From assembly GCF_013520985.1 (NCBI RefSeq), contig NZ_JACDTY010000014.1:1-64000 (forward strand): a stretch of 64,000 nt of DNA. The letters are read 5' to 3'. Within the stretch, counting starts at the first letter, position 1, and each line of letters opens with the position of its first letter. This document shows positions 7,212 through 49,763 of the stretch, piece by piece. A program made the position numbers and the translations under genes. The notes below the pieces were generated by a model. The model did not search any database and was not told the DNA's origin. It was given only the letters and a program-made list of their open reading frames with translations. The stretch is from Mesorhizobium neociceri. Its GTDB lineage: Bacteria > Pseudomonadota > Alphaproteobacteria > Rhizobiales > Rhizobiaceae.

Positions 7212-7243
7212 GTAATTTTATAACAGTAACAATATAACGTTTG
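7212..7243 (-). promoter_or_regulatory. two overlapping Zur-like boxes upstream of the metal importer operon
   Basis: Box 1 at 7212-7229 (GTAATTTTATAACAGTAA) matches 15 of 18 positions of the alphaproteobacterial Zur palindrome GTAATGTTATAACATTAC as I recall it. Box 2 at 7226-7243 starts 14 bp later (GTAACAATATAACGTT) and is weaker, 12 of 18. They lie 50-80 bp upstream of the binding-protein start in a conspicuously AT-rich island. Binding is inferred. Confidence 0.6.
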
Positions 7244-7412
7244 CGTCGAAAATACGGTCGGTGTCAATGGGTTTTTTGAGCGGCGAACTTTTTCTCGCGC
7301 ACAAAAGTGTGAGCGGCCCACGCCGATCTGGCGGGGCCGCTCATGTCTGTCGGCGATGCACGAAGGGGGTGGGGCTCGGCGCACGGTCCCGGCCCGAGAT
7401 CAACGGCTGGAG

Positions 7413-11132: not shown

Positions 11133-11142
11133 GCGCACGCTC

Positions 11143-11313
11143 GCATTCCTTCGCGCCCCCCTCTGTCCTGCCGGACATCTCCCCCACACGGGGGGAGATT
11201 GGCAGTTCCAGCCCAGGCGCTCATCTTGCGACGGTGAAGGTTGGCGAAAGCAGAGGCGAGAGCACAATCTCCCCCCTCGCGGGGGAGATGTCCGGCAGGA
11301 CAGAGGGGGGCGC
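11143..11313. repeat. paired inverted palindromic repeat, family B, inside the aromatic operon
   Basis: Arms at about 11143-11200 and 11267-11313 are inverted copies of a sequence with a hairpin core (ATCTCCCCC..GGGGGAGAT) and a tail CGCCCCCCTCTGTCCTGCCGG, the first extended by GCATTCCTTCG. The hairpin ends face each other, unlike the other pairs in the window, where tails face inward. It fills most of the 207-bp gap between livM and livH in an otherwise gapless operon. Confidence 0.85.
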
Positions 11314-11339
11314 CGTAGAGCACAATCATTGCCCGCCTC

Positions 11340-12203: not shown

Positions 12204-12204
12204 G

Positions 12205-13628: not shown

Positions 13629-13631
13629 GGC

Positions 13632-14912
13632 CTAGGCAATCGCTTCCATCGTCCCGCCGGTAGGAATGTTCGGCGCGGTCTTGTTGTCGGTGATGACGAG
13701 ATCGTAGCCGCCGCCATCCTTCAGCCGCCACTGGCCGCCGACCAGCGGCGTCTTGGCAATGTTCTTGGCGGCGAAGGGCGGCAGGTTGGCGCCGTCCCAG
13801 GCGATCGGTCCGACCACTGTGTCGAGCTTGGTCGCGGCGATCGCCGCCGCCACCTTGTCGCCGTCGCCGGGTTCACCGGCCCGCTTCATGACATCGACGG
13901 CGATCTCGAACAGCGCATGGACAAAGCCGATCGGCTGCGTCCATTGCCGGCCGGTGGCTTTGGTGAAGCCTTCGGCGACCTGCGCCGAGCTTTCGCCGGT
14001 CAGCGATGATTTGAACGGATGGTTCGGCGTCCACCAGACTTCCGACGACAGATTGTGGCCGGACTTGCCGAGCGCCTCGACCGACTGTGGGAACAGAAGC
14101 GCCTTGCCGATCGACGCCACCTTGGGCGCAAAACCCTGCTGCTTGGCCTGGTTCCAGAAGGTGGTGAAATCGGGCGGGATCATCACGCCGGTGATGATCT
14201 CGCAGGACGCACCCTTGAAGGCGTTGATCTGCGCCGAAAAGTCATCGGTCAGGTTCTGGTAGCGGCCGGTGTCGGTCAGCCCGTAGCCGCCCTTGGCCAG
14301 CACCGGCGGGAAGCCGACCGTGCCGTCGCCCCAGGCGTTGCCGTCGCCGTCATTGGGGAACAGGCCGCCGACCTTTTTGTTGGTCTCGACCTGCGCCCAC
14401 ATGTTGGTGAAGACGGCAATGACGTCCTCCAGCCCCCAGAAGAAATGGTAGGCGTAATTGAATGGCTTCCACGAGGCGGGGTCGCCGGGATTGCCTTGCT
14501 GGCCGATGAACCAGGGCTGCCACGGCGCCACGGTCGACAGGCACGGCACTTCCTCCGCCTCGCAGGTTGTGGCGACCGGATTGGTGGTCTCCGGCGTCGA
14601 GGCGACAAGCATCAAATTGACCTTGTCGTTGACGATCAGTTCCTTGGCGACTTCCGCCGCGCGGTTGGGATTGGACTGGCTGTCCTTGACCACGACCTCA
14701 TAGTTGAGGCCGGCGGCCTTGGTGGCGGCGAGAAAGCCGTCGATGATGAATTTATCGGCCTCGGCGAAGGCGGCCAGCGGGCCGGATTGCGGGCTGACAT
14801 AGCCGAGCTTGATCGGTGCATTCTGGGCGATCGCCGGCATGGCGATGCCCGATGTGCCGGCGAGCAAGCCGGTGGCGGCTGTGTTGCGGATGAATTCGCG
14901 TCTGGTAATCAT
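13632..14912 (-). CDS. ABC transporter substrate-binding protein, Peripla_BP_6 type, with Tat signal
   Basis: Periplasmic receptor of 426 aa for the Liv-type importer. The N-terminus MITRREFIRNTAATGLL has a twin-arginine motif and a hydrophobic stretch ending near MPAIAQNA, so Tat export of a folded protein is likely. The mature part starts IKLGYVSPQSGPLAAFAEAD, typical of the LivJ/AmiC-like fold. The ligand is unknown; operon context suggests an aromatic compound. It lies 22 bp after the maleylacetate reductase gene in the transcribed direction. Confidence 0.9.
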   Translation of the reverse strand: MITRREFIRNTAATGLLAGTSGIAMPAIAQNAPIKLGYVSPQSGPLAAFAEADKFIIDGFLAATKAAGLNYEVVVKDSQSNPNRAAEVAKELIVNDKVNLMLVASTPETTNPVATTCEAEEVPCLSTVAPWQPWFIGQQGNPGDPASWKPFNYAYHFFWGLEDVIAVFTNMWAQVETNKKVGGLFPNDGDGNAWGDGTVGFPPVLAKGGYGLTDTGRYQNLTDDFSAQINAFKGASCEIITGVMIPPDFTTFWNQAKQQGFAPKVASIGKALLFPQSVEALGKSGHNLSSEVWWTPNHPFKSSLTGESSAQVAEGFTKATGRQWTQPIGFVHALFEIAVDVMKRAGEPGDGDKVAAAIAATKLDTVVGPIAWDGANLPPFAAKNIAKTPLVGGQWRLKDGGGYDLVITDNKTAPNIPTGGTMEAIA

Positions 14913-14934
14913 TTTTGTTCCTCCCTTGTTGCCG

Positions 14935-15996
14935 TCAGTTCTGCGGACGTCTTCCCTCCCACGCGTCCTGCAACAGGGCGCGGATTGCGGCGCGATCGAA
15001 AGGCCGCGGATTCCAGTATGGGTTCTTGGTCGCGATCTCGGCGGCGCGGTCGAGATCGCTCTGTTTGAGACCGAGCTCTTTCAGTGTCAGCGGCGCGCTA
15101 ACGGACTTCGCGAAATCATGCAGACCGCCGCCGGCGCTGCCGCCAAAAATGTCGGCGACAGGCTTGAGCAGGTCGGGCACGGCGACGGCGTTGAAGCCGA
15201 TCGTGTGCGGCAGCATCACCGCATGCGTCTCCGCATGCGGCATGTCGAAGGAGCCGCCCAGCGTGTGGCAGATCTTGTGGTGCAGCGCCATGCCGACGGT
15301 GCCAAGCACGGTGCCACACAGCCAGGCGCCGTAGAGCGCATCGCCACGCGCGTCGAGATTTTTCGGCTCCTTGATCAACACCGGCAGCGCCGCCTTCAGC
15401 GCACGCAGCCCTTCGGTCGCCATCAAGGTCGAAATCGGATTGCGGTCCCGCGCGTAGAGCGCTTCCGCCGCGTGCGCCATGGCATTGAGGCCAGAGGTGA
15501 CGGACATCGCCACCGGCAGGCCGATGGTCAGTTCCGGATCGTAGATCACCACTTCCGGCAGGATCTTTGCGTCACGCACCGTGGTCTTTTCGCCGTTCTC
15601 GGTCTGGCCGAGGATCGGCGTCACTTCGGAGCCGGCATAGGTGGTCGGGATGACGATCTGCGGCAGGTCGGTGCGATAGGCGATTGCCTTGCCCAGCCCC
15701 GTGGTCGAGCCGCCGCCGAGCGCAACGACGCAGTCGGCTTTGACCTCTTGCGCCTTGCTCATGGCTGCTTCGGTGACCTCGACCGGCGTGTGCATGGCGG
15801 CGCCTGAAAACGTCCCCGCCGCCAGCGGTCCAAGCCTCTTCGCCAGCGCTTCGCCATCGGCCGCCTGGTGCGGTGTCGACAACACCAGCGCGCGCTTGCA
15901 GCCGAGCTTTTCGATCCAGGTGCCGACCTCGGTCGACGCGCCATTGCCGAAGACGATATGCGCCGGACTGCCGGAATAGGTGAACGTCCTTGTCAT
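14935..15996 (-). CDS. maleylacetate reductase, iron-containing alcohol dehydrogenase family
   Basis: Cytoplasmic NAD(P)H-dependent enzyme of 353 aa reducing maleylacetate to 3-oxoadipate, the step after hydroxyquinol ring cleavage. It shows the nucleotide-binding block VALGGGSTTGLGKAIA (about 91-106), PTTYAGSEVT, and the metal/active-site region MALHHKICHTLGGSFDMPHAETHAVMLPH near 230-258. The start MTRTFTY was chosen because it overlaps the stop of the preceding dioxygenase gene by 4 bp. Family assignment is firm; specificity follows from the neighbours. Confidence 0.9.
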   Translation of the reverse strand: MTRTFTYSGSPAHIVFGNGASTEVGTWIEKLGCKRALVLSTPHQAADGEALAKRLGPLAAGTFSGAAMHTPVEVTEAAMSKAQEVKADCVVALGGGSTTGLGKAIAYRTDLPQIVIPTTYAGSEVTPILGQTENGEKTTVRDAKILPEVVIYDPELTIGLPVAMSVTSGLNAMAHAAEALYARDRNPISTLMATEGLRALKAALPVLIKEPKNLDARGDALYGAWLCGTVLGTVGMALHHKICHTLGGSFDMPHAETHAVMLPHTIGFNAVAVPDLLKPVADIFGGSAGGGLHDFAKSVSAPLTLKELGLKQSDLDRAAEIATKNPYWNPRPFDRAAIRALLQDAWEGRRPQN

Positions 15997-16868
15997 GCCG
16001 CCCGGCTCCCCTTGCGCGCCATCACCATGACGAAGCCAAAATCGAGCGACCAGCTCTCGCCACCTTTGCCTGCGGTGCACTTGAAATCGCCGACCAGTTC
16101 CGGCTTGACGCCGAACAGCGCATCTTCGTCGAGGCGCGGATCGCCGCGCTCGAACACTTGCGTCGTCAGCGTCTCGAAATTGTCGGCGCGGATCAGGAAG
16201 TGAATGTGCGACGGTCGGCTGAGCGGATAGTTCAACTGCCCGAGCATCTGTCCGACCGGTCCGTCGTCGGGCACGCCGTAGCCGGCGGGCTTGACGGTTC
16301 GGTAGTTGAAGCAGCCATCCTTGTCGGTGGTGAAGACGCCGCGCAGGTTGAATTCAGGCTGCAGGTCGGGCTGCTGGTTTTCATAAAAGCCTTGCGCGTT
16401 GGCTTGCCACGTCTCGACCGTCGCGCCGGCGATCGGCAATCCGTCGAGGTCGGTTACCCGCCCCGTCACGGTCAGTGGTTTGCCGATACCGTCGAGTGAA
16501 ATGTCGGCGCCGAGAGCCAGCCTTGGGGCATCGGCGCGATAGAAGGGACCGCGTCCGGTGTTGGGTGTCGCGCCGTTCGGGCGGCGGGAGTTGATCTCCT
16601 CGACCAGTGCGGTGACGCCGAGCAGGTCGGACAGCAGGACCCATTCCTGCCGCTTGTCGTCGCTGGCATGGCCGATTTCGGTGAGGAAGGCGATCGCCTG
16701 GCGCCAGTCCGCCGCGGTCGGCCGGGTTTCCCGGACGATCTGGTGGAGATGGTCGACCACGGTCGCCAGAAAGCGCGGCAACGGCCCGGCCTTCGCCTTC
16801 AACAGCCGCTGGGCAACCATCTCCGCGGAGTTGGCCTCGTTGAACGACGGTATGCCGGACTGCGACAT
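15993..16868 (-). CDS. intradiol ring-cleavage dioxygenase, probable hydroxyquinol 1,2-dioxygenase (copy 1)
   Basis: Fe(III) dioxygenase of 291 aa at the head of the nine-gene operon. Iron ligands are complete: Tyr162 (GFYENQ), Tyr197 (GYGVPD), His221 and His223 (PSHIHF). The N-terminal helical domain (residues 12-95) matches that of copy 2 at the distal end of the operon, but overall the two have diverged widely, especially in the linker and C-terminus. Direct translational coupling to maleylacetate reductase makes this the more certain hydroxyquinol enzyme. It is divergent from the LysR gene. Confidence 0.9.
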   Translation of the reverse strand: MSQSGIPSFNEANSAEMVAQRLLKAKAGPLPRFLATVVDHLHQIVRETRPTAADWRQAIAFLTEIGHASDDKRQEWVLLSDLLGVTALVEEINSRRPNGATPNTGRGPFYRADAPRLALGADISLDGIGKPLTVTGRVTDLDGLPIAGATVETWQANAQGFYENQQPDLQPEFNLRGVFTTDKDGCFNYRTVKPAGYGVPDDGPVGQMLGQLNYPLSRPSHIHFLIRADNFETLTTQVFERGDPRLDEDALFGVKPELVGDFKCTAGKGGESWSLDFGFVMVMARKGSRAA

Positions 16869-27039: not shown

Positions 27040-28158
27040 CTACGGTTTTGGGGTGGCCGCTGCGCCTCCGAAGTCAAATTCCGCAGGGTCTCTCCCCAGC
27101 TTTTGGATGCCGCGGGCAAGTGCTGCCTGAACCGTGTCTCTCTCGCGATCGTCGATCTCGGACAAGCTTCTTCGAATGGCCTCCTTCCACGCGGGACCGC
27201 GGTCGGATGCCTCCATGAAAGCGTCGGCAAGGTCCTCTGTTTGCCGTTGTTCGATCATAGCTTCCATAATGGTGGCGGCCTGGATCTTATCCTTACGGCT
27301 TTTTGCGGTACCATCCTTGTCCGTCCGACGGCGGCTGGCGACGATGAGCTTGTGGATGGCGTATCGTTCGGGCGCCGGTACGTTCACTGGTATGCCGGCC
27401 CCGTGAAGGAGAACTGCCCGGATGGGCTGATGTATCAGGAAATCGAGAAACCGCAGGGGCTGCGCTGATGCGCCGCCAAGCGCGGGCATGGGTGTCGGAT
27501 GACTCTCGTAGTCGGCCGAACCGGTATTCGGTGTCAGGAACTCGACCTTGTATCCCGACCGAGACGAATATTTTGTGGTGAAGCGACCGTCGGCCTGATG
27601 TGGAATTTCCCGGAATGTCGGATCGACGGTCTTCAGCGTATCGAGCACAGGCGGCATCTTGTCGTCAACGGCCACCGAAATCGAATGAAACTGCGCGAAG
27701 TCAGCATCGCCTGTGACCATCGATGTACTCGGCAGGCGAACACCAAGGACGGCTGGATAGCATTGATAGGCGACGGTGCCTATCAGAACTCCGCGGAGCC
27801 GGAAGAAGCCTGCTTCGGCAAGTGCCCGTACAACATCACCGGTCTTGCCTTCTGGTCGCGGCAAATAGGCCTCGCGGACGAGCGTCGAAACCAGTTTTCG
27901 CCGCTCTCTCATATCGGCTTTCAGGTCTTTGAAATTTTCGACCCTCTTGGTGATTTCAGGATCGTCGACCGGGCCGACATATGTCCGTGTCTTGTTGCCG
28001 CCAGAATTGGGTACGTCAAAATACCAATAGCGGCGTCCTTTCACCTCGGCGGCGACAAACCTGCCGTCGATGTTGAACTCCGTCGTAAAGGAGGCGTCGA
28101 GCGATCGCTGTGCGAGCTCCGAATAGAGTGTCTGGTAAGTCAGAGGAATCTGCTGCAT
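27040..28158 (-). CDS. GSU2403-type nucleotidyltransferase fold protein
   Basis: Protein of 372 aa of the minimal-nucleotidyltransferase superfamily (NTP_transf_8/GSU2403-like as I recognise it). The N-terminal helical part is followed by the GT-A-type loop LIGTVAYQCYPAVLGV (126-140) and the catalytic pair Asp151/Asp153 in VTGDADFAQF. The C-terminus is helical with Lys/Arg-rich AIHKLIVASRRRTDKDG. Function is not established; related folds are toxins of AbiEii/MenT type or RNA-modifying enzymes. GC is lower than in flanking operons. Two palindromes precede it and no Shine-Dalgarno site is visible, so expression is probably tightly controlled. Confidence 0.75.
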   Translation of the reverse strand: MQQIPLTYQTLYSELAQRSLDASFTTEFNIDGRFVAAEVKGRRYWYFDVPNSGGNKTRTYVGPVDDPEITKRVENFKDLKADMRERRKLVSTLVREAYLPRPEGKTGDVVRALAEAGFFRLRGVLIGTVAYQCYPAVLGVRLPSTSMVTGDADFAQFHSISVAVDDKMPPVLDTLKTVDPTFREIPHQADGRFTTKYSSRSGYKVEFLTPNTGSADYESHPTPMPALGGASAQPLRFLDFLIHQPIRAVLLHGAGIPVNVPAPERYAIHKLIVASRRRTDKDGTAKSRKDKIQAATIMEAMIEQRQTEDLADAFMEASDRGPAWKEAIRRSLSEIDDRERDTVQAALARGIQKLGRDPAEFDFGGAAATPKP

Positions 28159-28287: not shown

Positions 28288-29229
28288 TCACACCGTCCAG
28301 AAATAGCGGACGATGTGGAAGAACACGGGGGCGGCAAAGACCAGGCTGTCGGCGCGGTCCATCATGCCGCCATGGCCCTCGATCAAATGGCCCCAGTCCT
28401 TGACGCCCTGGTCGCGCTTGATGGCCGACGCGACCAGCCCGCCGAGAAATCCCATCAGGCAGGCGATGAAGGCGACGCCTGCCGCCGCCAGCGGCGAGAA
28501 CGGCGTCAGGAACGACAACAACGCACCGAGCAGGCTCGACGCGACCAGTCCGCCGATCAGCCCTTCCCAGGTCTTTGACGGCGAGACGGAGGGCGACAGC
28601 AGATGCCGGCCGAACAGCTTGCCGAAAATGTATTGCAGCACGTCGCTGCCTTGCACGGTGATGATCAGGAAGGCGATGAGCAGGAGATTGCGACCTTCGG
28701 GCACGTTGAGCGTCAGCAGCGCCGGAACATGGCTGACGCAGTAGACGGAGATCATGACCGCCCATTGCTGCGCCGACACGCGCTCAAGGAAGCGCTCGGT
28801 GTCGCCGTTGAGCGCCGTGATCGCCGGCATCAAGAGGAAGCAGTAGACCGGGATGAAGATGGTGAACAGCCCATACCAGGCGGTCCACACCAGCCAGTAC
28901 TGGAAGGGGATGATGATGCCGAACATGCCGAGCAGCACCCAGTGATCGCTGCGCCGGCTGTGCGTCAGCGTCACGAATTCGCGCAGCGCTGCAAACGAGA
29001 TCAGCGCAAACAGGATGGTCATGCCGGTGCGGCCGAAGAAGAACGCGACAGTGATCGCCACCACCATCACCCACCAGGCGTTGATGCGCTGGTTGAGGTT
29101 GACGAGCGTCGAGGGCAGCGGCTTCGGCGCCCGCCACGATAGGATGCCGGCAACGATGCTCGCCGTTGTCAGCACGCCGACCAGGCCGACCAGCAGGATG
29201 ACGGTTTCATGCATTGGCGGCAGTGTCAT
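28288..29229 (-). CDS. CdsA-like phosphatidate cytidylyltransferase (YnbB-type)
   Basis: Integral membrane enzyme of 313 aa making CDP-diacylglycerol from phosphatidate and CTP. About eight hydrophobic segments are present. The C-terminal signature is intact: SAIKRDQGVKDWGHLIEGHGG followed by MMDRADSL, with the usual P of PGHGG replaced by E. It is the distal gene of a six-gene lipid operon and probably not the housekeeping cdsA, which normally sits with uppS, dxr and bamA. The order with PAP2/phosphatase, hydrolase-methyltransferase and CDP-alcohol transferase genes resembles E. coli ynbABCD. Confidence 0.88.
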   Translation of the reverse strand: MTLPPMHETVILLVGLVGVLTTASIVAGILSWRAPKPLPSTLVNLNQRINAWWVMVVAITVAFFFGRTGMTILFALISFAALREFVTLTHSRRSDHWVLLGMFGIIIPFQYWLVWTAWYGLFTIFIPVYCFLLMPAITALNGDTERFLERVSAQQWAVMISVYCVSHVPALLTLNVPEGRNLLLIAFLIITVQGSDVLQYIFGKLFGRHLLSPSVSPSKTWEGLIGGLVASSLLGALLSFLTPFSPLAAAGVAFIACLMGFLGGLVASAIKRDQGVKDWGHLIEGHGGMMDRADSLVFAAPVFFHIVRYFWTV

Positions 29230-29253
29230 GCGAAGTCTCTTGTGTAGTCATGG

Positions 29254-29922
29254 CTAGTCGTCTCGATCGGGGCGCGGATCGAGCGACAGCAGCGTCTGGC
29301 GCGCGCGCTCAAGGAAAGCGCGGCGCTCTTCGCCGGGACTTATCGCCACCGGCGGGCCGAAGACGACGCGGCACAGAAGCGGCACCGGCAGGAACTGCCC
29401 CTTGGGCAGCACGCGCGACATGTTCTCGATCCAGCACGGGATGAGTTCGACGTCGGGTCGCGCCATCGACAGATTGTAGAGACCGGAGCGGAACGGCAGC
29501 AGATCCGCCTCCGTCGTGTTGCGTGTGCCCTCCGGAAACAGGATCAGCGAATGGCCGTCATCGAGCACCGACAGCATGATCGAGATCGGGTTCTGCGTCT
29601 CGTCGGTCCACTGCCGGTGGATGAGCACGGAAGACAGCATGTCCTCGGCGATGAACCGGCGCAGCCGCGACTTGCCCCAATATTCGGCCGCCGCGACGGC
29701 ATGCGTACGTGCGCGCACCTTCTCGCTAAGGCAGGCCGACAACAGGATGAAATCGCCATGGCTGGCATGGTTGGCAAAGTAGATGCGCTGCCGCTCCGAA
29801 GGCTGGCTGCCGTTCCAGATTGGCCGCACACCGGTCACCACCCAGGCCGCCGCCGACAGGCCGACCGAGGTCACCGTCTGCAGCAAGGTGAAGGTGTTGG
29901 CGCGCAGGTGAAGTTTTGTCAT
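29254..29922 (-). CDS. plsC: 1-acyl-sn-glycerol-3-phosphate acyltransferase (PlsC family)
   Basis: Membrane-associated acyltransferase of 222 aa producing phosphatidate. The HX4D catalytic motif is His52-ASHG-Asp57 (NHASHGD) and the acceptor motif is FPEGTRN (Glu131). A hydrophobic N-terminal helix (residues 10-30) anchors it. Located between the CdsA-like gene and a small membrane-protein gene, it would supply phosphatidate to the CdsA-like enzyme. It is an addition to the ynbABCD set. Confidence 0.88.
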   Translation of the reverse strand: MTKLHLRANTFTLLQTVTSVGLSAAAWVVTGVRPIWNGSQPSERQRIYFANHASHGDFILLSACLSEKVRARTHAVAAAEYWGKSRLRRFIAEDMLSSVLIHRQWTDETQNPISIMLSVLDDGHSLILFPEGTRNTTEADLLPFRSGLYNLSMARPDVELIPCWIENMSRVLPKGQFLPVPLLCRVVFGPPVAISPGEERRAFLERARQTLLSLDPRPDRDD

Positions 29923-29925
29923 GGC

Positions 29926-30360
29926 TCAAACAAACGCTGCGAAAAGGGATGCCGCCACAAACACGGCGAGCGCCATGCGCTGCCTTGTCAGCAGGCGGCG
30001 TGTGCCTGCCATGCGATGGTCGAGCGAGCGGCCGCCGGCAGGGGTGGGCTTCAGGCGCATGCGCGCCAGTACATCGTCGACCACGGCGCCGCCGGCGGCT
30101 TCGCTGGCGTGGCTGGCCATCAGCCGGAACAGCAGCGCGTCGAATAAAAGCAACGCCGAAAGAGCCAGCGTGATCATGGCACTCGCCGCCGCGACCAGCC
30201 AGGCCGCCGCCGACAGCGCGGTCGTCTGCGGTCCGGTCACCAGGCCGATGACCGGCGCCGCCATCACGGCGGCCACCACCAGCAGGATCGGCCACACCGC
30301 CTGCACCATCAGCCCGGCGGCGAAAGCCTCTACCTTGTCGTGATAGGCCTCGTCGTTCAT
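29926..30360 (-). CDS. small membrane protein of unknown function in the lipid operon
   Basis: Hypothetical protein of 144 aa with three probable membrane segments (residues about 16-42, 48-75, and the C-terminal 125-144) separated by a basic cytosolic loop containing ARMRLKPTPAGGRSLDHRM. No known domain was recognised. It lies 3 bp upstream of plsC and 10 bp after the PAP2/phosphatase gene, so it is a true operon member. It could be a structural or chaperone subunit for a lipid enzyme. Confidence 0.72.
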   Translation of the reverse strand: MNDEAYHDKVEAFAAGLMVQAVWPILLVVAAVMAAPVIGLVTGPQTTALSAAAWLVAAASAMITLALSALLLFDALLFRLMASHASEAAGGAVVDDVLARMRLKPTPAGGRSLDHRMAGTRRLLTRQRMALAVFVAASLFAAFV

Positions 30361-30370
30361 GCCGGTCCAC

Positions 30371-31717
30371 TCATGTTGGTTCTTCCAGCCCGCTGTGAAG
30401 ATGCACAGGCCTGCCCGAAGCGGCGAGTTTCTTGCGCGCCTGTGCGGCTGTGTGCGCGCGCCCGGTCACCACCAGCCAGTCGGCGATGATGGCGGCGCTG
30501 CGCTGGAAGCCGAGCGCGCAGCAGACCAGCACGGTGCCGCGCCGGCGCGCCAGCTCGATCGCCGCCACCGCCCGCTCCAGCCGATCATGCGGCGGCTCCA
30601 CGAGGTCGAGCACGGCATAGCTGATCCAGCGGCAGGTCACGCCGCGTGGCCGTTCCAGCTCGCCGGCAAGGTCGATCACCGTGCCGAAGCGGTTGGCTTC
30701 GCCGGCGGTGGGAAACCGGCCGAAGAAAACGCCGTCGGTGATCTCTGCTTGCGGCGTCAGTCGGCGGGTCCATGCCCACACATTGATCCGGGCGCCAAGC
30801 CGGTAGGGCAGGAGCAGGATGCGGCTGGCAAGCGAGACGCTGCCATCGGCTGCCTTCTGGAACACTTTGGCGCCGGCCCCGGCATAGGCGAAGGCGACGA
30901 TGGCCAACGCGAGCGACGGCCATAGCAGGATGAGCGAGACGGCGGAGAAGAAGGCGCCCGCGGCAGCGGCCGCCAGGGCGAGGGCGGCACCGAGCGCATA
31001 ATATCCCGCCAGTCGGCGCGCCTTTGGGTCGGTGGTCGGTCGGAAGCCCCAGAAAGGCAATTCGCCCTTGCCCGGAAACAGCCACAGCGCAAAAAGACCT
31101 AGCAGCACGCCGGTCGGAATGTCGATGAAATGATGCTGCCAGGTCGTCATCACCGAAGCGCCGATGAGAAAGCACCAGACGTGCCAGACGGGTCCGAGAA
31201 TGGCGCCGAGACGGTGGCGTGCGATAACGTGACGCCAGTGATCCCAGATGATCATCAGGAGTGCGATGTGCAGGGATGGCGCCTGGTTGAACGGTTTGTC
31301 GAAACCGCCGAGCACCGCGAAGAGAAAACCCGGCAGGCCGGTGGTTGTCGGCCGTACGAAGGTCGCCGTCAGCGGAAACAGGATGAAGCAGATGACGGCA
31401 ATGATCTGTGCCGTGAGATAGCGGCCGGCGAGACGGTCGACGCCGCGCCTGCTCGTGTTGAGTAGCAGCGACAGGCCGTAGAAAAGATTGATCGACCAGT
31501 AGGGCACGATCGTCCAGGCGAGGAACGGGATGGCATGTTCCCAGGCAAATACGATGCTGCCGACATGACCGCGCCGCGATGCCAGCCAGTTGGCAAAGCC
31601 ATAGGTCGAATAGAAGAACGGCGCCAGCAGGGCCAGCCAAAGGGCGGCCCTCAGCACGATACCGGAATAAGGTTCCCGCGACGGGGCAGGGGCAGGGTCG
31701 GTGGCAGGCAGGGCCAT
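30371..31717 (-). CDS. PAP2-like membrane protein fused to dual-specificity phosphatase domain (YnbD-type)
   Basis: Protein of 448 aa. Residues 20-300 hold about eight membrane segments of the PAP2/AUR1-like type (FNQAPSLHIALLMIIWDHW with the SLH motif, then HHFIDIPTGVLLG). Residues 330-440 are a dual-specificity phosphatase with the CX5R loop Cys400-ALGFQ-Arg406 and a general-acid region near DLVEPP. The fusion matches E. coli YnbD in layout. It could dephosphorylate a phosphorylated lipid headgroup made by the CDP-alcohol transferase; this is inferred. It follows the hydrolase-methyltransferase gene by 4 bp. Confidence 0.85.
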   Translation of the reverse strand: MALPATDPAPAPSREPYSGIVLRAALWLALLAPFFYSTYGFANWLASRRGHVGSIVFAWEHAIPFLAWTIVPYWSINLFYGLSLLLNTSRRGVDRLAGRYLTAQIIAVICFILFPLTATFVRPTTTGLPGFLFAVLGGFDKPFNQAPSLHIALLMIIWDHWRHVIARHRLGAILGPVWHVWCFLIGASVMTTWQHHFIDIPTGVLLGLFALWLFPGKGELPFWGFRPTTDPKARRLAGYYALGAALALAAAAAGAFFSAVSLILLWPSLALAIVAFAYAGAGAKVFQKAADGSVSLASRILLLPYRLGARINVWAWTRRLTPQAEITDGVFFGRFPTAGEANRFGTVIDLAGELERPRGVTCRWISYAVLDLVEPPHDRLERAVAAIELARRRGTVLVCCALGFQRSAAIIADWLVVTGRAHTAAQARKKLAASGRPVHLHSGLEEPT

Positions 31718-31721
31718 CGTT

Positions 31722-33506
31722 TCAGACGCGCCGTGCGACTGAAACGGTGAAGATGCCCCATTGGTCGATGCGCTGGTCGATCTTCTCGAAACCGGCCGCC
31801 GTCACCAGCTGGTCCATCTCGCCTTGCGTGCGCCGCCGCATCACCCAGGCCTGGCCGCCGCGATGCGAGGTCAGGCTGCGCGCGATCATCTCCAGCTGCG
31901 GATGCCATGGCTGGTTGGTGTAGATCAGCAGGCTGCCGGGCTGCATGGCGCTGGCCAGTCCACCGAGCGAGCGCGAAATCATCGTATTGTCAGCGAACAA
32001 TTCGTAGAGGCCGGAGACGATGGCGAGGTCCGGCGCCGGCCTCAGCCCGGCCAGCATTTTGGCATCGAAGGCGTCGGCCCGGTGGAAGGTCACGCTGGTC
32101 GGCAGATTCCGCTCGGCGATGAGTTTCGAGCCCAGTCCGACATTGAGCTCGGAATAGTCCTGCAGGCGCACGCTCGCCGGCGGTTCGGCGCATTTGGCGA
32201 CGGCATCGAGCACATAGCGGCCATGGCCGGCGGCGATGTCGAGCATGTGGACGGGGCGGCCGCCAGCCTTCAGGCTGGCGACGGCGTTGCCGATCAGCTC
32301 TTCCAGATGCAGCTTGCGTTGGCGGATGCCACGCCAGCCGATAGCGTCGAGGAAGGTGCGGTCGATCATGCGGCCGATGAAGCCGGTGCCGCGCGCCTCG
32401 TTCTCGTAGACATAGTCGAGCGTCGAGCCGGAATCGAAGCCGGTGGCAATGCCCGTCTTCATGCCCGACGACAGCCAGGCGCCTATGCGGATCGAGGCGC
32501 GGCTCATCGCCCAGTAAAGGCCTTTTGGCGACAGCAGCGCCAGCGGCGAGGCCAGCTTCTCGGCCTCGTCGCGGGTGTAGCCGACGCGGTCGGCTGAGGT
32601 CAGGTCGATCGTCTTCTCCGGCGCTGCGAACTGCTTTTCGAGGAACGGCCGGATCAGGTCGAGCGCCTGCTTACGATCGCGCTCGCCCAGCGTGTCGTGG
32701 AAGAAGCCGGGCAGCACATGCCGCTCCTTGGCGCTGCTACCAAGATTGACGAAGAATTCGTGCTGCGGTGCGTGCCGCACCACCCAATCGCTACCAGAGA
32801 TCAGCAACTGCGTCGGCACGGTGATGGCGCGGGCGTCCGCGACGATGCGGGCGGCGTGGTCATAGAGTTCGACCAGGATGTTGGACGCGATCGGCCGGGT
32901 GATCAGCGGATCGGCATCGAAGGAAGCGATGCGCTCGGCATCATGCGTCAGGAACTTTGCCTTGACGTAGGAATTGACGAAGAAGCGGCCCTTGAGCTTC
33001 TGCCACAGTGCAATGCCCTCCTTGGCGAAGGGCACGTAGAGTTTCACCGAAAAGGCCGGCGAAGCCACCACCAGCGCGCGGATGTCGGGCGCATAGTCAT
33101 GCACCCAGGCGGCGGCGAGAACCGCGCCGAAGGATTGCGCAATCAGTGCGATGTCGTGCTGGCCAAAACCATCCCGGCCGATCTCTCGCACCAGGCAGTC
33201 GATGTCGCGCACCAGGGCGGCAAAGGATGGGGCATAGCCGCGTTCGCCGGCGGAGCGGCCATTGCCGCGCGCGTCCCAGGCGTAGAAGGCATGATCGGGC
33301 ATGGCGAGTTCGTCGACCAGATGCGCCATGCGGCCGCCATGCTCGTGACCGCGGTGGAATAGCAGGATCGCGCCCTTGGGCGTCGGCCCAAGAGCCGGCC
33401 AGCATCGGTAGAAGATCTCGGTGCCGTCGTGAGTTTTGAAGGTGCGCTCTTGCGCCACGCGCTCGAGGGTTGCCGGTGCTGCTGCGGCGATGGTCTGGTG
33501 GATCAT
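31722..33506 (-). CDS. bifunctional alpha/beta hydrolase and SAM-dependent methyltransferase (YnbC-type)
   Basis: Two-domain protein of about 594 aa. The N-terminal half (residues 15-290) is an alpha/beta hydrolase of the monoglyceride-lipase kind: LFHRGHEHGGRM, the nucleophile elbow AQSFGAV, and the C-terminal His in GFFHDTLGE. The rest is a class I methyltransferase with the SAM loop LDIAAGHGRYVLDA. Start MIHQTI was chosen because AGGGGGA lies 5 bp upstream; a start 39 bp earlier would overlap the preceding gene by 1 bp. The same fusion occurs as YnbC in E. coli. Its lipid or headgroup substrate is unknown. Confidence 0.85.
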   Translation of the reverse strand: MIHQTIAAAAPATLERVAQERTFKTHDGTEIFYRCWPALGPTPKGAILLFHRGHEHGGRMAHLVDELAMPDHAFYAWDARGNGRSAGERGYAPSFAALVRDIDCLVREIGRDGFGQHDIALIAQSFGAVLAAAWVHDYAPDIRALVVASPAFSVKLYVPFAKEGIALWQKLKGRFFVNSYVKAKFLTHDAERIASFDADPLITRPIASNILVELYDHAARIVADARAITVPTQLLISGSDWVVRHAPQHEFFVNLGSSAKERHVLPGFFHDTLGERDRKQALDLIRPFLEKQFAAPEKTIDLTSADRVGYTRDEAEKLASPLALLSPKGLYWAMSRASIRIGAWLSSGMKTGIATGFDSGSTLDYVYENEARGTGFIGRMIDRTFLDAIGWRGIRQRKLHLEELIGNAVASLKAGGRPVHMLDIAAGHGRYVLDAVAKCAEPPASVRLQDYSELNVGLGSKLIAERNLPTSVTFHRADAFDAKMLAGLRPAPDLAIVSGLYELFADNTMISRSLGGLASAMQPGSLLIYTNQPWHPQLEMIARSLTSHRGGQAWVMRRRTQGEMDQLVTAAGFEKIDQRIDQWGIFTVSVARRV

Positions 33507-33544
33507 GGTTTCCCCCTGGCGGTCGGGCTGCTGACGCTTCGGCA

Positions 33545-34147
33545 TCAGGTGCCGCCCGCTCTAAGGCCGCCGCGTATCCGGTTGATGGCGGTTACCACGG
33601 ACAGTGTAGCCAAGACCGGAAACACAAAGGGCGCGATCGCGTCGACCCATAGGCCGCAGGCGATGAGGAAGGCGATGACGCCGAGCGCCAGCGCCCGGTC
33701 GCTCTTGCCGAACGGCCCGGCATAGTTGCGCCCGCTGCCGGCGGCGACACCGAGCACGCCGGCGAACTCTACAAGCATGGCGGCAATGGCGAAGGCGACG
33801 ACGCCCCAGGCCGGGAACAGCGTGGCAAAGGCCAGGATCAGCGCCAGGTCGGAGACGACGTCGCAGAGTTCGTTGAGATACATGCCGAGCTTTGAGGCCT
33901 GTGCATGTTCCCTGGCCAGCATCCCGTCAATGGCGTTGAGCGCCATGCGCACGAACAGCACCACCGGCATCAAAAGGAAAACCAAGGGATAGCCGGCAAG
34001 GGCGACGACCACCAGGCCGGTGGCGATGGACAGCGCGGCGGCGAGAAGCGTGATCTGGTTGGCGGTGACGCCGGCGCCGGCCAGCCGGTCGGCCAGCGGC
34101 CGCAACCTGGCCTGAAAGGCCGGTTTCAGTGCATAGAGCGTAGGCAT
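33545..34147 (-). CDS. CDP-alcohol phosphatidyltransferase with Asn substitutions (YnbA-type)
   Basis: First gene of the lipid operon, 200 aa with about six membrane segments. The family motif DxxDGxxAR-x8-GxxxDxxxD appears as Asn71-AI-Asp74-Gly75-ML-Ala78-Arg79, Gly88-MYL-Asn92-ELC-Asp96. So the first and third metal-binding Asp are Asn. My recollection is that E. coli YnbA has the same changes, making this a subfamily trait, not decay. The enzyme would couple CDP-diacylglycerol to an alcohol or alcohol phosphate; headgroup identity is unknown. The operon promoter should lie in the 152 bp upstream. Confidence 0.85.
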   Translation of the reverse strand: MPTLYALKPAFQARLRPLADRLAGAGVTANQITLLAAALSIATGLVVVALAGYPLVFLLMPVVLFVRMALNAIDGMLAREHAQASKLGMYLNELCDVVSDLALILAFATLFPAWGVVAFAIAAMLVEFAGVLGVAAGSGRNYAGPFGKSDRALALGVIAFLIACGLWVDAIAPFVFPVLATLSVVTAINRIRGGLRAGGT

Positions 34148-34299: not shown

Positions 34300-34791
34300 T
34301 CACACACTTTGACTTTGCTGCTCTTGATCTGCCTGCCAGAAAGTCAGCTGATAGTCATACAGATCTTCGGAATCGGGCAGGTCTTCGGAATCGGGAGTGA
34401 AAAACTCGACGACAAACCTTCGGTTCGGAAACTGCCACTGCAGCTTGGCCTGGTAGATCTCCTTGAGGATCGAGCCGAGGAACACCAGCTTGTCGCGCGA
34501 GATGTCGGCGGTGGCGTAGGCCTGAATGTCGGCTATGTGCAGGTGGTTCATCACCGCTTCGACGGATTCTCGTGTGGCCTTGGGGTTGTGTTCGAAACTT
34601 CTCAGACCCTCCTCGCTGAACCCTTTTATCAGCACGTAGCCTTCGAACTCTGTGAACTCCGGCCAGAAGACGGTGCTGTATCCTACCGCGAGCGCAAATC
34701 GGCCCTCGCAGCAAACCCAGCCTTGCAAATCGATGCCGTCGCCATTGTTCCTGGCTCCCAGCTCGGCCTTCATGCTGTCCGGAATGTTCAT
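34300..34791 (-). CDS. conserved-looking hypothetical protein
   Basis: Unrecognised protein of 163 aa from MNIPDS; a longer frame from 34887 would reach back to the divergent NADAR gene and is less likely. It is rich in aromatic and acidic residues with no signal peptide or membrane segment: GWVCCEGRFALAVGYSTVFWP and an acidic duplicated DLPDSEDLYDY (repeat of PDSEDL) near the C-terminus. GC is lower than in its neighbours. An immunity-protein-like or general cytosolic role is possible, but no function is claimed. Confidence 0.65.
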   Translation of the reverse strand: MNIPDSMKAELGARNNGDGIDLQGWVCCEGRFALAVGYSTVFWPEFTEFEGYVLIKGFSEEGLRSFEHNPKATRESVEAVMNHLHIADIQAYATADISRDKLVFLGSILKEIYQAKLQWQFPNRRFVVEFFTPDSEDLPDSEDLYDYQLTFWQADQEQQSQSV

Positions 34792-34885
34792 TCTGTTGTA
34801 TCCAGATTTCTCGTCAGACTCGGTTTTAGCGAATTCGATTGGTCGCGGACATGGGTCAAATATCCGAGGACTCAAAGGCGCTCCC

Positions 34886-35440
34886 ATGACCTACGACCGT
34901 TCGTGGCTCGAAGCAGCCTTCCGCGCAAAATCCCGCGCGAAGCTGCTGTTCTTCTGGGGACACCAGCCGTCGAAGGACGGACGCATCACCACGTCCTGCC
35001 TCAGCCAGTGGTGGCCGGCGCCGTTCAGCGTCGATGGCTTGACCTATCCGACGGCCGAACACTGGATGATGGCCGGCAAGGCGCGCCTGTTCGGCGACGA
35101 TCAGACGGCAACGCAGATCCTCAGCGCGGGCAGCCCCAGGCAGGCCAAGCAGCTCGGACGGCAAGTCAGCCGCTTCGATGCGGCGCGGTGGGATGCGGAG
35201 AAATACCGCCTCGTCACCGAGGGGAGTTTTGAGAAATTCCGCCAGCACGAGGCGCTCGGCGCGTTTCTGCTTTCGACCGGCGATCAGGTGTTGGTCGAAG
35301 CGAGCCCGGTCGACCGGATCTGGGGCATTGGCCTGGCCGCCGATGACGAGCGCGCGGGCAATCCGCTGTTGTGGCGCGGCGAAAACCTGCTTGGCTTCGC
35401 CCTGATGGAGGCGCGCGACCGGCTGCGCGGTCGAAAGTAG
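34886..35440 (+). CDS. NADAR family protein (YbiA-like N-glycosidase)
   Basis: Cytosolic protein of 184 aa. It has the NADAR/YbiA pattern: FFWGHQP near 23-29, LSQWWPAPFSVDGLTYPTAEHWMMAGKARLF near 41-71, and the C-terminal VDRIWGIGLAADD..NPLLWRGENLLGFALMEAR block. YbiA-like enzymes hydrolyse the N-glycosidic bond of early, reactive riboflavin intermediates, and other NADAR proteins act on ADP-ribose linkages or in phage conflict. The start MTYDRS was chosen from the conserved N-terminus. It is divergent from the hypothetical gene. Confidence 0.87.
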   Translation: MTYDRSWLEAAFRAKSRAKLLFFWGHQPSKDGRITTSCLSQWWPAPFSVDGLTYPTAEHWMMAGKARLFGDDQTATQILSAGSPRQAKQLGRQVSRFDAARWDAEKYRLVTEGSFEKFRQHEALGAFLLSTGDQVLVEASPVDRIWGIGLAADDERAGNPLLWRGENLLGFALMEARDRLRGRK

Positions 35441-47124: not shown

Positions 47125-47769
47125 ATGCCGACAGTGGAGAAAAAATTGGACGACCAGCAGACGGCAACCGCCCAAGGTCCACGCGAAGCCGCAGCGCCAA
47201 AGCCGCTGCGCGCCGACGCGCAGCGCAACCGTGACCGGCTGGTCGAGGTGGCGGCGACGGCGTTTGCCGAGCAGGGCGTCGATGCTTCGCTGGAGGAGAT
47301 CGCGCGCAAGGCCGGTGTCGGCATCGGCACGCTCTACCGGCATTTTCCGACCCGCGAGCATCTGGTCGAAGTGGTCTATCGGCGTGAAGTCGAGGCGCTC
47401 TGCGCGGCTGCCGATGACCTAGCCAGCCACCATCCGGCCGATGTGGCGCTGGAACAGTGGATGCAGCGCTTCGTCGATTACATCGCCACCAAGCGCGGCC
47501 TGGCCGCCAGCCTGCGCATCCTGTTCAACACCAATTCCGCCGTGTTTTCCGACATGTCGGGCCGGGTGTCGCTGGCCTTGCGGCAACTGGTCGAGGCGGC
47601 GGTGGCCGAAGGCTCGATCCGCAGCGACATCGACGCCTCCGATGTGCTGCATGCACTCGGGGGCATCTACTCGGCCCCCGACACCAAGGACTGGCGCGAC
47701 CGCTCGCGCCGGCTGGTCAAGCTGCTGATGGACGGGTTGCGGTTTGGGGCAGGGAAGGGTGGTGGGTAA
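47125..47769 (+). CDS. TetR/AcrR family transcriptional regulator
   Basis: Repressor-type regulator of 214 aa. The HTH at residues 32-80 reads DRLVEVAATAFAEQGVDASLEEIARKAGVGIGTLYRHFPTREHLVEVVY. The C-terminal ligand domain (YIATKRGLAASLRILFN) is like SbtR-type members. The ATG lacks a Shine-Dalgarno site; a TTG 21 bp later has GGAG 8 bp upstream and is an alternative. The gene is divergent from the aldehyde oxidoreductase operon with a TetR-type palindrome in between, so it probably regulates that operon. Confidence 0.88.
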   Translation: MPTVEKKLDDQQTATAQGPREAAAPKPLRADAQRNRDRLVEVAATAFAEQGVDASLEEIARKAGVGIGTLYRHFPTREHLVEVVYRREVEALCAAADDLASHHPADVALEQWMQRFVDYIATKRGLAASLRILFNTNSAVFSDMSGRVSLALRQLVEAAVAEGSIRSDIDASDVLHALGGIYSAPDTKDWRDRSRRLVKLLMDGLRFGAGKGGG

Positions 47770-48002
47770 GAAGGAAGGAAGTCTTCGCAAAAGTGAAGCC
47801 ACCGAAGGGCGCTGTGGCGCGGTTCGCACTATCCGTTCGTCGACAGCGGTTTCAAATAGTCCATATGGTAGCGCTATCTTTGCGATGAATTTGCCAAGCG
47901 GAATAGTGCGCACAAAAGTAGTTAGGAAGTCGGAGAGCGGAGTGGAAGGCCTCCTATTCTCAGTGATATGCTGCTCGTGAAAGTTTGCGCCTTGGGGGGG
48001 CC

Positions 48003-49763
48003 ATGTACGACCTTATTCAGAAGCAGATTACGTCCGATTATTTTCAGCAGAAGTTTCCCAATGATGGGCAGCGATTCGTTGCATGGTATCTTCGAAACAT
48101 TCTGTTCCGCGATATGAACGAAACTCGAGACGACATTACTGATGGGGCTGACGACAAGCAAATTGATGCGCTTATTGTAGACGACGACAAATCCTTGGTT
48201 CGCATCGTACAGGGCAAATTCATTCAAGCTGAAACGGTCGATGCGGAGCCGTTACGCGAAGTTCTGTCGTCATGGCTTCAGATTAAGGACCTTGCACGGC
48301 TCCAGAACGTAGCCAACCAGAAACTTGCCCGCAAGCTTCCCGAGTTAGCAGCGGCATTGGAGGAGGATTATGAAGTATCCTTTGAATTGATTACCACGGG
48401 CAGACTAACCGCGGCGGCGCAACACGATCTCAAGGCGTTCCAAGAGGAATTGGCGAAACTCAGTGAAAATGAGGCCTTTGACGCAAGTATTCACGTCATT
48501 GACGCCGACGAATTGAGGCGACGCTACGACTACGCCATTGAAGCAGAAAACCCTAGCATCAGCTATAAGCTCTCGCTCGCAGGCGTGAAGCACATGTACC
48601 ACGAAATCGCGGGGACGCCCGTACTCATCGCGGCCTTACCCCTCAAGGAATGCGTGAAGCTCCCGGGTATCAAGGACGGGACCCTTTTCCAAAAAAATGT
48701 GCGCCAGAGCCTTGGATCAAGCAACGTCGTCAATAAAGGAATTCGCAACACAATTTTGGGCGATAAGCGCAGTGATTTCTTTTTCTTCCATAATGGCGTA
48801 ACCGCGCTGTGCAACAAGATAAACTTGGAGGGTGATACGTTATCGTTAAGGGGATTGAGTATCGTTAACGGTTGCCAATCTTTAAACACGATCCTTTCTT
48901 GCAGTGAAACCGTAAAGAAGGTCGATGATGCGTTCATCCTATTCCGTTTCTATGAGATACCTCAGCGCGACCGGGCCGACAAGATTTCAATCTACACCAA
49001 CTCACAGAGCGCGGTGAAGGCGCGTGACCTTCGCAGCAACGACAAACGCGTCCTTGCCATCAAGAAGGCGTATGAGTTGCGGTATCCGACCGGCTATTTC
49101 ATCACAAAGCGCGGTGAAATAGCTCCTGCTGATAAGAGCAGAAAGCATATTATCGAACTTTCGTCTTTCGCCAAGAATCTCGTCGCGTGGCAGACGCTCC
49201 GCCCTAACCTTTCGTATGGCGAGACGAAGATATTTGATAAGTATTTTGAAACTTTATTTAAAAACAAGGATTATCCCCCAGAAAATGTATTTGCGCTGAA
49301 CGACTGGATGAATGAAGTTCAGGCGGCGTGGGTGCCGGATAACCCGCTTATGCTCAACGAGAGCCTTTTGGCAATGAAGGCCTATGCTCCCTATCATCAC
49401 CTCTATGCAGTAGCGGTGATATTCTCAATCTCGAGTAATCAGTCAGATCGCGTACCTAGCGCAAGTAAGTCTCTAGAGTTGGCTACGCGCTGCAGCATGA
49501 CTGAAGAAATTGTTCGCATCGCAGGAACTTGCTTGAACATGGCCCTTGAAGCAGCGGCAAACGAAACGCAACCTGCAAATCGTGTTTTTAGCCCTCAAAA
49601 CTGGGTCAAATCGAAGACTTGTTTGGCTGGTATCAACGGTGCGGTTCGAAATTACCTTAATATGTTGAAGGGTTTTCCTGGTGGTACCGAAGTAAAGAAG
49701 CGTCTGGACGAAGCGACGGTGCTGCCATTGGAGGCGTTCGAATATAGGCTCTCGGCAGACTAG
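48003..49763 (+). CDS. AIPR family protein (abortive infection phage resistance type)
   Basis: Protein of 586 aa of the AIPR family (PF10592 as I recognise it). The hallmark is FFFFHNGVTALCNKI around residue 258 with SIVNGCQSLNTIL soon after, and TNSQSAVKARDLRSND further on. AIPR proteins are annotated as abortive-infection phage-resistance factors and often accompany restriction systems; biochemical function is not clear. The gene is notably AT-rich relative to its neighbours with a different codon use, indicating recent transfer. No methylase or nuclease gene is adjacent. The start ATG follows a G-run (GGGGGGGCC). Confidence 0.87.
   Translation: MYDLIQKQITSDYFQQKFPNDGQRFVAWYLRNILFRDMNETRDDITDGADDKQIDALIVDDDKSLVRIVQGKFIQAETVDAEPLREVLSSWLQIKDLARLQNVANQKLARKLPELAAALEEDYEVSFELITTGRLTAAAQHDLKAFQEELAKLSENEAFDASIHVIDADELRRRYDYAIEAENPSISYKLSLAGVKHMYHEIAGTPVLIAALPLKECVKLPGIKDGTLFQKNVRQSLGSSNVVNKGIRNTILGDKRSDFFFFHNGVTALCNKINLEGDTLSLRGLSIVNGCQSLNTILSCSETVKKVDDAFILFRFYEIPQRDRADKISIYTNSQSAVKARDLRSNDKRVLAIKKAYELRYPTGYFITKRGEIAPADKSRKHIIELSSFAKNLVAWQTLRPNLSYGETKIFDKYFETLFKNKDYPPENVFALNDWMNEVQAAWVPDNPLMLNESLLAMKAYAPYHHLYAVAVIFSISSNQSDRVPSASKSLELATRCSMTEEIVRIAGTCLNMALEAAANETQPANRVFSPQNWVKSKTCLAGINGAVRNYLNMLKGFPGGTEVKKRLDEATVLPLEAFEYRLSAD

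What the first reader, a model, noticed from the sequence alone, without database searches (positions are those of the whole stretch)
28288..34147. ynbABCD-like lipid operon extended by PlsC and an unknown membrane protein
Order in transcription: CDP-alcohol transferase, hydrolase-methyltransferase fusion, PAP2-phosphatase fusion, small membrane protein, PlsC, CdsA-like. Four of them match the unusual domain fusions of E. coli ynbABCD, whose product is, to my knowledge, not established. With PlsC and CdsA in the same transcript the cell can make its own CDP-diacylglycerol pool for one particular headgroup lipid. I see this as the best candidate for an undescribed pathway here.
Basis: partly seen in the sequence, partly recalled or inferred. 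Interest (0 to 1): 0.75.

Follow-up and report, generated by a model that had tools for sequence, protein, structure and literature searches.

The report
Arc1-type membrane-lipid operon in Mesorhizobium
Six neighbouring genes of a soil bacterium match, gene for gene, a known cluster that helps Pseudomonas survive lipid-cutting toxins from rival bacteria; what lipid it makes is still unknown, and its key enzyme family has an unusual rebuilt active site.

Summary
Six tightly packed minus-strand genes (28288-34147) encode, in order: a CDP-alcohol phosphotransferase-like protein (A), a hydrolase-methyltransferase fusion (B), a PAP2-dual-specificity-phosphatase fusion (C), a small membrane protein (D), a PlsC-like acyltransferase (E) and a CdsA-like protein (F). 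CdsA is not an addition to ynbABCD: it is ynbB. Only D and E are added.

The operon is not undescribed. Its order and content are those of Pseudomonas aeruginosa arc1A-F (PA2541-PA2536), named in 2022 as an antagonism resistance cluster and linked in 2025 to resistance against T6SS lipase effectors (PMC8926400, PMC12663445). Primer sequences from the 2022 paper place PA2541 and PA2536 on A and F of a syntenic Pseudomonas-type locus. The order is kept in 84 of 123 loci compared.

The lipid product remains unknown. B, C, E and F keep their catalytic motifs. In A, two of eight residues called absolutely conserved in CDP-alcohol phosphotransferases (metal ligands D1 and D3) are Asn in all 121 proteins that cover the motif, while the catalytic base and two phosphate-binding arginines are kept. 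I found no report of this. Most likely: a dedicated phosphatidyl-polyol-phosphate route to a modified, protective phospholipid.

The parts
33545..34147 (-). A: CDP-alcohol phosphotransferase-like protein (200 aa), orthologue of Arc1A/PA2541 and YnbA; signature N71xxD74G..AR..G88xxxN92E93xxD96 with Asn at D1 and D3
   Evidence: Pfam CDP-OH_P_transf 3.1e-7; nearest NCBIfam model archaetidylinositol-phosphate synthase 3.6e-22, below its cut-off; 48% identity to the PA2541-like protein and to YnbA; motif
31722..33545 (-). B: alpha/beta-hydrolase (monoglyceride-lipase-like) fused to class I methyltransferase Methyltransf_20 (607 aa; the start could also be 33506); orthologue of Arc1B and YnbC
   Evidence: Pfam; 59% to the Pseudomonas-type protein, 56% to YnbC; Ser138, Asp253, His283 and the SAM-motif residues D436, G440, G442 invariant or nearly so in 117 distinct rows
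30371..31717 (-). C: PAP2-type membrane domain fused to dual-specificity phosphatase (448 aa); orthologue of Arc1C and YnbD
   Evidence: Pfam over 16 family members; PSLH150, H195/H196, D199 and C400-x5-R406 invariant or nearly so; model whose C-terminal part matches dual-specificity phosphatases, Z up to 14.6
29926..30360 (-). D: small membrane protein (144 aa; model with three long helices and one short one), orthologue of Arc1D by position and profile; no Pfam family
   Evidence: No Pfam match; found directly after C in 109 of 116 loci with C; D74, L77, D95, L98, R116, G119 invariant in 21 diverse sequences; model pLDDT 86.5
29254..29922 (-). E: PlsC-like acyltransferase (222 aa), orthologue of Arc1E
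   Evidence: Pfam Acyltransferase 1.4e-15; H52-x4-D57 and FPEGTR near-invariant in 100 distinct rows, 50% identity to the Pseudomonas-type protein
28288..29229 (-). F: CdsA-like phosphatidate cytidylyltransferase (313 aa), orthologue of Arc1F/PA2536 and YnbB
   Evidence: Pfam CTP_transf_1 5.5e-65; CdsA-type signature near-invariant in 102 distinct rows; 55% to the PA2536-like protein, 39% to YnbB

Best explanation
The operon is the Mesorhizobium orthologue of the antagonism resistance cluster arc1A-F, of which E. coli ynbABCD is a shortened, rearranged relative. It makes a separate small pool of one modified phospholipid. E acylates lysophosphatidic acid (or a lysolipid) to phosphatidic acid; F turns it into CDP-diacylglycerol; A moves the phosphatidyl group to a phosphorylated polyol (inositol-phosphate or glycerol-phosphate type), giving phosphatidyl-X-phosphate; the phosphatase domain(s) of C remove the phosphate; B methylates the headgroup and its hydrolase domain trims or recycles acyl chains; D is a membrane partner or scaffold. 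The product, or the flux through the route, helps the membrane withstand phospholipase toxins delivered by neighbours. Shown here: orthology, gene order, which catalytic residues are kept. Shown in print for relatives: protection in P. aeruginosa, CDP-DAG synthesis by YnbB. Inferred: acceptor, order of steps, product, roles of B and D, and any defence role in Mesorhizobium.
For: Same six genes in the same order in the Pseudomonas-type locus L172, where stretches from the printed primers give the start and end of PA2541 on A and the start of PA2536 on F. 84 of 123 loci keep the order ABCDEF on one strand. arc1 protects P. aeruginosa against the T6SS of B. thailandensis, and arc1A against lipase effectors of V. 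cholerae and A. baylyi. Catalytic motifs of B, C, E and F are kept. A keeps the catalytic base D4, an N-x2-T nucleotide motif, and arginines R151 and R190, which align with the two inositol-phosphate-binding arginines R155 and R195 of PIP synthase, counted along the printed alignment. A phosphorylated acceptor fits a phosphatase in the same operon. Some relatives keep A, F and E without any B, C or D match (L244, L245, L247), or a methyltransferase without hydrolase with A, F and E (L203, L204), so A-F-E looks like the core. Genomes with Methyltransf_20 more often carry VipB of the T6SS: 19 of 27 against 69 of 371.
Against: Two of three metal ligands of A are Asn in every sequence covering the motif, so transfer from CDP-DAG is not assured. 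I found no reported lipid product, and saw no measurement of lipids made by arc1 in the passages I read of the two arc1 papers. arc1A is called auxiliary next to arc3A against V. cholerae. 8 of 27 genomes with Methyltransf_20 lack VipB, and the association is not corrected for kinship or genome size. The arc1 paper says Gac/Rsm is restricted to gamma-proteobacteria, so its control cannot be assumed here. The reduced A-F-E forms lack phosphatase, methyltransferase and D.
Confidence: 0.55

Rival explanations
1. Back-up synthesis or repair of ordinary phospholipids: the operon re-makes PG-type lipids after phospholipase damage. The hydrolase clears lysolipids, PlsC re-acylates, F and A rebuild phosphatidylglycerol phosphate, and C dephosphorylates it to PG.
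For: The arc1 paper states that four arc1 genes resemble enzymes required for phosphatidylglycerol synthesis; B's hydrolase is closest in sequence to monoacylglycerol lipases; PTPMT1 is among the structural neighbours of C's phosphatase (3rgq, Z 13.4); arc1A protects against lipases.
Against: The methyltransferase has no place in PG synthesis; A is far below the NCBIfam pgsA cut-off (21.9 against 109.1 bits) and lacks D1 and D3; YnbB does not replace CdsA for bulk lipids; PTPMT1 ranks below other dual-specificity phosphatases.
Confidence: 0.2
2. MPIase-type glycolipid branch: the CdsA-like F makes GlcNAc-PP-DAG or a related pyrophosphate lipid, and the rest of the operon modifies it.
For: Over-produced YnbB raises MPIase, and restores it when CdsA is depleted.
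Against: No glycosyltransferase domain in the six proteins; the ynbB knock-out has no significant change in MPIase; PlsC, A and C have no evident place in that route.
Confidence: 0.08
3. A is not a transferase any more: the Asn changes make it a CDP-DAG-binding or scaffold protein, and the product comes from the PAP2 domain of C acting as a headgroup phosphotransferase.
For: Asn at D1 and D3 in 121 of 121 proteins that cover the motif; C's PAP2 domain resembles PAP2_3 (13 of 16 members), with PSLH and HH-x2-D motifs that I recall (no call) from inositol-phosphorylceramide synthases.
Against: D4, D2, the glycines, the N-x2-T motif and the two acceptor arginines are invariant in 21 diverse A proteins, which a mere scaffold would not need; A is kept in forms that lack C.
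Confidence: 0.12

Closest known systems
arc1A-F (PA2541-PA2536) of Pseudomonas aeruginosa, antagonism resistance cluster 1 (Ting et al. 2022, PMC8926400)
   Same: Six genes, same order and strand; A 48%, B 59%, C 49%, F 55% and E 50% identity to the Pseudomonas-type locus L172; D by position and profile.
   Different: Host is a soil alphaproteobacterium; no Gac/Rsm control shown; defence not tested there. In Rhizobium and Shinella relatives A is divergently transcribed.
E. coli ynbABCD
   Same: A, F, B and C orthologous (48, 39, 56 and 39% identity). A match covering at least 80% of the locus occurs in 4242 of 5426 E. coli genomes.
   Different: Order A-F-B-C; no D and no PlsC. One E. coli conjugative plasmid carries A-F-E-B with only a remnant of C.
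Phosphatidylinositol-phosphate synthase and archaetidylinositol-phosphate synthase (class I CDP-alcohol phosphotransferases)
   Same: A's profile matches PIP synthase 6h53 (E 1.9e-11) over nearly its whole length; catalytic base and both phosphate-binding arginines kept.
   Different: Asn at D1 and D3, with an invariant Glu after the second Asn; scores far below the NCBIfam cut-offs.
LplT/Aas lysophospholipid repair and Arc3 (PF10101)
   Same: Same biological problem in print: surviving phospholipase toxins.
   Different: Arc3 and arc1 are different genes in print; no PF10101 match among the six proteins. The host has an Arc3A-like gene elsewhere (G000:C71).

Membership tests
arc1 cluster (arc1A-F) | Six genes in order CDP-alcohol transferase, hydrolase-methyltransferase, PAP2-phosphatase, small membrane protein, acyltransferase, CdsA-like, one strand | tested here: met
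   The content of arc1 itself is read from L172 and from the paper's text; its figure supplement was not seen
arc1 cluster (arc1A-F) | Orthology to PA2541 and PA2536 themselves | tested here: met
The other 4 (both outer flanks of PA2541, the end and outer flank of PA2536) do not match exactly, so it is a near relative of PAO1, not PAO1
arc1 cluster (arc1A-F) | Gac/Rsm-controlled expression | not tested
   Only a sigma-70 scan was run, 0 sites, which says little for Mesorhizobium
arc1 cluster (arc1A-F) | Protection against T6SS or lipase effectors | not testable with these tools
   Needs competition assays; only a genome-level association with T6SS was computed
ynbABCD | The four ynb genes and nothing else, CdsA-like gene second | tested here: not met
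   All four orthologues present, but the order differs and D and PlsC are added
Orthodox class I CDP-alcohol phosphotransferase | Profile homology to the family | tested here: met
   Pfam above cut-off; PDB profile matches
Orthodox class I CDP-alcohol phosphotransferase | Signature D1xxD2G1xxAR...G2xxxD3xxxD4 (eight residues called absolutely conserved in PMC4634129) | tested here: not met
   Asn at D1 and D3 in 121 of 123 A proteins; the other 2 are fragments without the motif. The four paralogues in the same genome have Asp at D1-D4 (three by pattern; one read by eye from the translation)
PgsA, PssA, PIP synthase or archaetidylinositol-phosphate synthase as equivalogs | NCBIfam cut-off | tested here: not met
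   21.9/109.1, 19.7/107, 43/170 and 79.2/180 bits
CDP-diacylglycerol synthase (CdsA/YnbB) | C-terminal signature K-R-D-x-G-x-K-D ... G-H-G-G ... D-R-x-D-S (recalled) | tested here: met
   activity itself not testable here
PlsC acyltransferase | HX4D and FPEGTR motifs (recalled) | tested here: met
Known solved fold for D | Foldseek match to a solved structure | tested here: inconclusive
   Best E 0.48; 0 of 202 matches at E <= 0.001

The most novel reading that the evidence does not exclude
Arc1A/YnbA is a separate class of CDP-alcohol phosphotransferase with a rebuilt metal site (Asn-Asp-Asn-Asp plus an invariant Glu after the second Asn). With PlsC, a slow CdsA and a methyltransferase-lipase fusion it makes a not yet seen methylated phospholipid that resists phospholipase toxins. 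The same unknown lipid would then be made by ynbABCD in most E. coli.
Probability: 0.35. Interest if true: 0.8.

Novelty: new member of a known kind. Interest (0 to 1): 0.5.

Why it matters
Joining the operon to arc1 gives an uncharacterised E. coli gene set, present in 4242 of 5426 complete genomes, a concrete, testable role in withstanding lipase toxins. The family-wide double Asn in Arc1A/YnbA is a precise clue for the missing chemistry: it tells biochemists which enzyme to assay, which residues to mutate and which acceptors to try (phosphorylated polyols). The reduced A-F-E forms suggest the minimal set to express.

Tried and rejected
Fold search of D (Foldseek, PDB): 202 matches at E <= 10, 0 at E <= 0.001. 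Fold search of whole C: only the phosphatase domain was tested, as it fills the list; the PAP2 half, of low confidence in places, was not. PADLOC: 0 matches for the six proteins and two flanking ones. NTP_transf_8 gene at 27040-28158 as a seventh gene: rejected; 129-base gap, GC3 0.64 against 0.79-0.88, found near the operon in 2 of 80 related loci. Upstream frame 34300-34887: found in 0 of 80. Genes next to reduced or rearranged forms (NnrS, MeaB, citrate transporter, TetR, WG-repeat protein, Bax1-I and others; 10 proteins) gave no shared hint. Promoter scan: 0 sites, 1.1 expected; terminator scan: 10, 5.1 expected, none used. My first gene-order runs mislabelled D because of long antisense frames; replace them. 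In one search the frame of E in L172 was wrong and gave no hit; one search corrects it. A second primer stretch found no locus. In one search, 14 strong A hits (over 120 bits) all carry Asn-Asp-Asn-Asp, one of them with a stop inside; of 23 weak hits, 9 loci hold a four-Asp pattern, 7 loci fitted no pattern and stayed unresolved, and 7 had no locus and were not examined.
Full report
What is there. The window lies in a Mesorhizobium-type genome: the 80 best of 472 related loci kept are mostly Mesorhizobium; the closest are an unplaced Rhizobiales isolate (95% over protein B), M. caraganae (94%) and Mesorhizobium sp. WSM4306 (93%). On the minus strand six genes run from 34147 down to 28288 with gaps of -1, 4, 10, 3 and 24 bases, then 129 bases to the next gene.

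It is arc1. A search for six PA25xx gene names (recalled by me as the Pseudomonas counterpart) gave one paper holding at least two of them: Ting et al. 2022, PMC8926400, which names PA2541-PA2536 as arc1A-F, antagonism resistance cluster 1. I read its sections 5 and 6 and passages elsewhere. They report that the cluster is needed for full survival of P. aeruginosa under T6SS attack by B. thailandensis, that it is induced through Gac/Rsm, and that five of six genes look like phospholipid metabolism, four of them resembling phosphatidylglycerol synthesis. To tie sequence to name, I used stretches of the printed deletion primers. One locus of 171 held the start of PA2541; another stretch found none. 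These fall on genes A and F, with B, C, D and E between. Identities to the window are A 48%, B 59%, C 49%, F 55% and E 50%. D is too diverged for a full pairwise alignment (a 37-residue match) but scores 128 bits with the D profile. A second paper, PMC12663445 (2025; passages only), finds arc1A needed for full resistance to lipase effectors of V. cholerae and A. baylyi, and calls it auxiliary next to arc3A against V. cholerae.

Conservation. Nearly all were found through B, and most of the named ones are Mesorhizobium, so counts are not independent. In 67 the profiles find A-B-C-D-E-F in order on one strand (four of them with an extra copy of D, E or F). In 17 more, D was missed by that profile but found by position and a broader one. 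Together 84 of 123; among the 35 unnamed stretches, 28. In 12 A is divergent; in 11 A is divergent and E and F are not within reach; 16 are truncated or rearranged. D follows C in 109 of 116 loci that have C; the 7 without it are four cut-off contigs, E. coli K-12, an E. coli plasmid and a Moraxella plasmid. Reduced forms exist: a methyltransferase without hydrolase plus A, F and E (L203, where A is split over two frames, and L204), and A, F and E with no match to B, C or D (L244, L245, and L247 with a second PlsC-like gene). A fourth stretch (L246) holds only broken pieces of A and F. The operon is accessory: full-length B in 22 of 37 genomes of the genus and Methyltransf_20 in 27 of 398 sampled genomes of the phylum. 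Eight flanking genes are found near the operon in only 0 to 5 of 80 related loci, so the six genes keep together where their surroundings do not; loci reach at most 7 kb to each side.

The odd enzyme. Two structural papers give the signature D1xxD2G1xxAR...G2xxxD3xxxD4. PMC4634129 (passages) calls its eight residues absolutely conserved, with D1 to D3 holding metal and D4 the base, and reports that D4-to-Asn nearly abolishes activity. PMC6506517 (passages) shows all four Asp at a two-metal site. In A, D1 and D3 are Asn. This holds in 121 of 123 A proteins, and the other two are fragments lacking the motif. It spans Alpha-, Beta- and Gammaproteobacteria and Fusobacterium. D2, both glycines, the catalytic base and a Glu after the second Asn are invariant in 21 diverse sequences; the Arg of AR is replaced in 2 of 121. 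The printed alignment to PIP synthase 6h53 (recalled as the M. tuberculosis enzyme; numbering counted by me) places the Asn residues on D1 and D3, and the invariant R151 and R190 on the two inositol-phosphate-binding arginines R155 and R195. Controls: the four other CDP-alcohol phosphotransferases of the same genome have Asp at D1 to D4 (three by pattern; one by eye). In a 200-genome search with A, 14 of 14 strong hits are Asn-Asp-Asn-Asp; of 23 weak hits, 9 loci hold a four-Asp pattern, 7 fitted no pattern and 7 were not examined. By contrast the catalytic residues of B, C, E and F are near-invariant, so this is not decay. I found no mention of the change in searches, which cover only held open-access papers.

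How it may work. E, F and A give PA, CDP-DAG and then a phosphatidyl product; the kept phosphate-binding arginines suggest a phosphorylated acceptor, and C supplies a phosphatase. This is the logic of PGP to PG or PIP to PI. B adds a methyltransferase and a monoacylglycerol-lipase-like hydrolase. That F feeds a special pool fits YnbB, which makes CDP-DAG in vitro but does not replace CdsA. The defence role in Mesorhizobium is inferred. The host has a VipB gene of a T6SS and an Arc3A-like gene. Across 398 genomes, Methyltransf_20 goes with VipB (19 of 27 against 69 of 371, Fisher p 3e-8) and with Arc3A over its cut-off (14 of 27 against 70 of 371, p 2e-4). Kinship and genome size are not corrected, and Methyltransf_20 is not always the full operon, so I give this little weight.

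Verdict. A known kind of operon in a new host, correctly spotted, wrongly called undescribed. The open question, what lipid it makes, is real, and the double Asn makes it sharper. The link between ynbABCD and arc1 is not made in either arc1 paper ('ynb' occurs 0 times in the main text of each), and one search listed no paper holding both names among the ten it showed.

Noticed in passing
window 47985-49763 (+): A 592-residue protein with an AIPR domain (Pfam 1.2e-34) lies in the only low-GC stretch of the window (49.7% against 60-68% elsewhere, 2-kb steps), next to a TetR-type regulator at 47125-47769. AIPR is recalled as an abortive-infection phage-resistance family; possibly a recent insertion.
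   Followed up: partly
window 34652-35440 (+): NADAR-domain protein (Pfam 8.3e-55) on the opposite strand upstream of the operon, overlapping the minus-strand frame 34300-34887.
   Followed up: no
L137 (E. coli plasmid NZ_CP045714.1) 6839-10979: A plasmid typed as conjugative carries an arc1-like set A-F-E-B, with the PlsC that ynbABCD lacks and only a remnant of C, about 5 kb from colicin M and its immunity gene.
   Followed up: partly
L139 (Moraxella osloensis plasmid) 8296-16272: A and B stand beside a patatin-like phospholipase and a short-chain dehydrogenase, with CdsA-like and PAP2 genes on the other strand.
   Followed up: no
L141 (Kosakonia cowanii plasmid) 4931-10656: A Methyltransf_20-type fusion sits at the end of a cluster with an acyl-carrier-type protein, ketosynthase, MaoC-type and FabG genes; no A, F or E found in the stretch.
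   Followed up: no
L244, L245, L247: Reduced A-F-E sets without a match to hydrolase-methyltransferase, PAP2-phosphatase or D, in two alphaproteobacteria and one genome of the Pseudomonas-type family.
   Followed up: partly
E. coli genomes, hits H30-H34: The five ynbABCD matches listed carry an insertion element within the locus (IS4, IS1, IS1, IS5 and IS3 family). The ranking may favour such split matches, so the rate of interruption is unknown.
   Followed up: no
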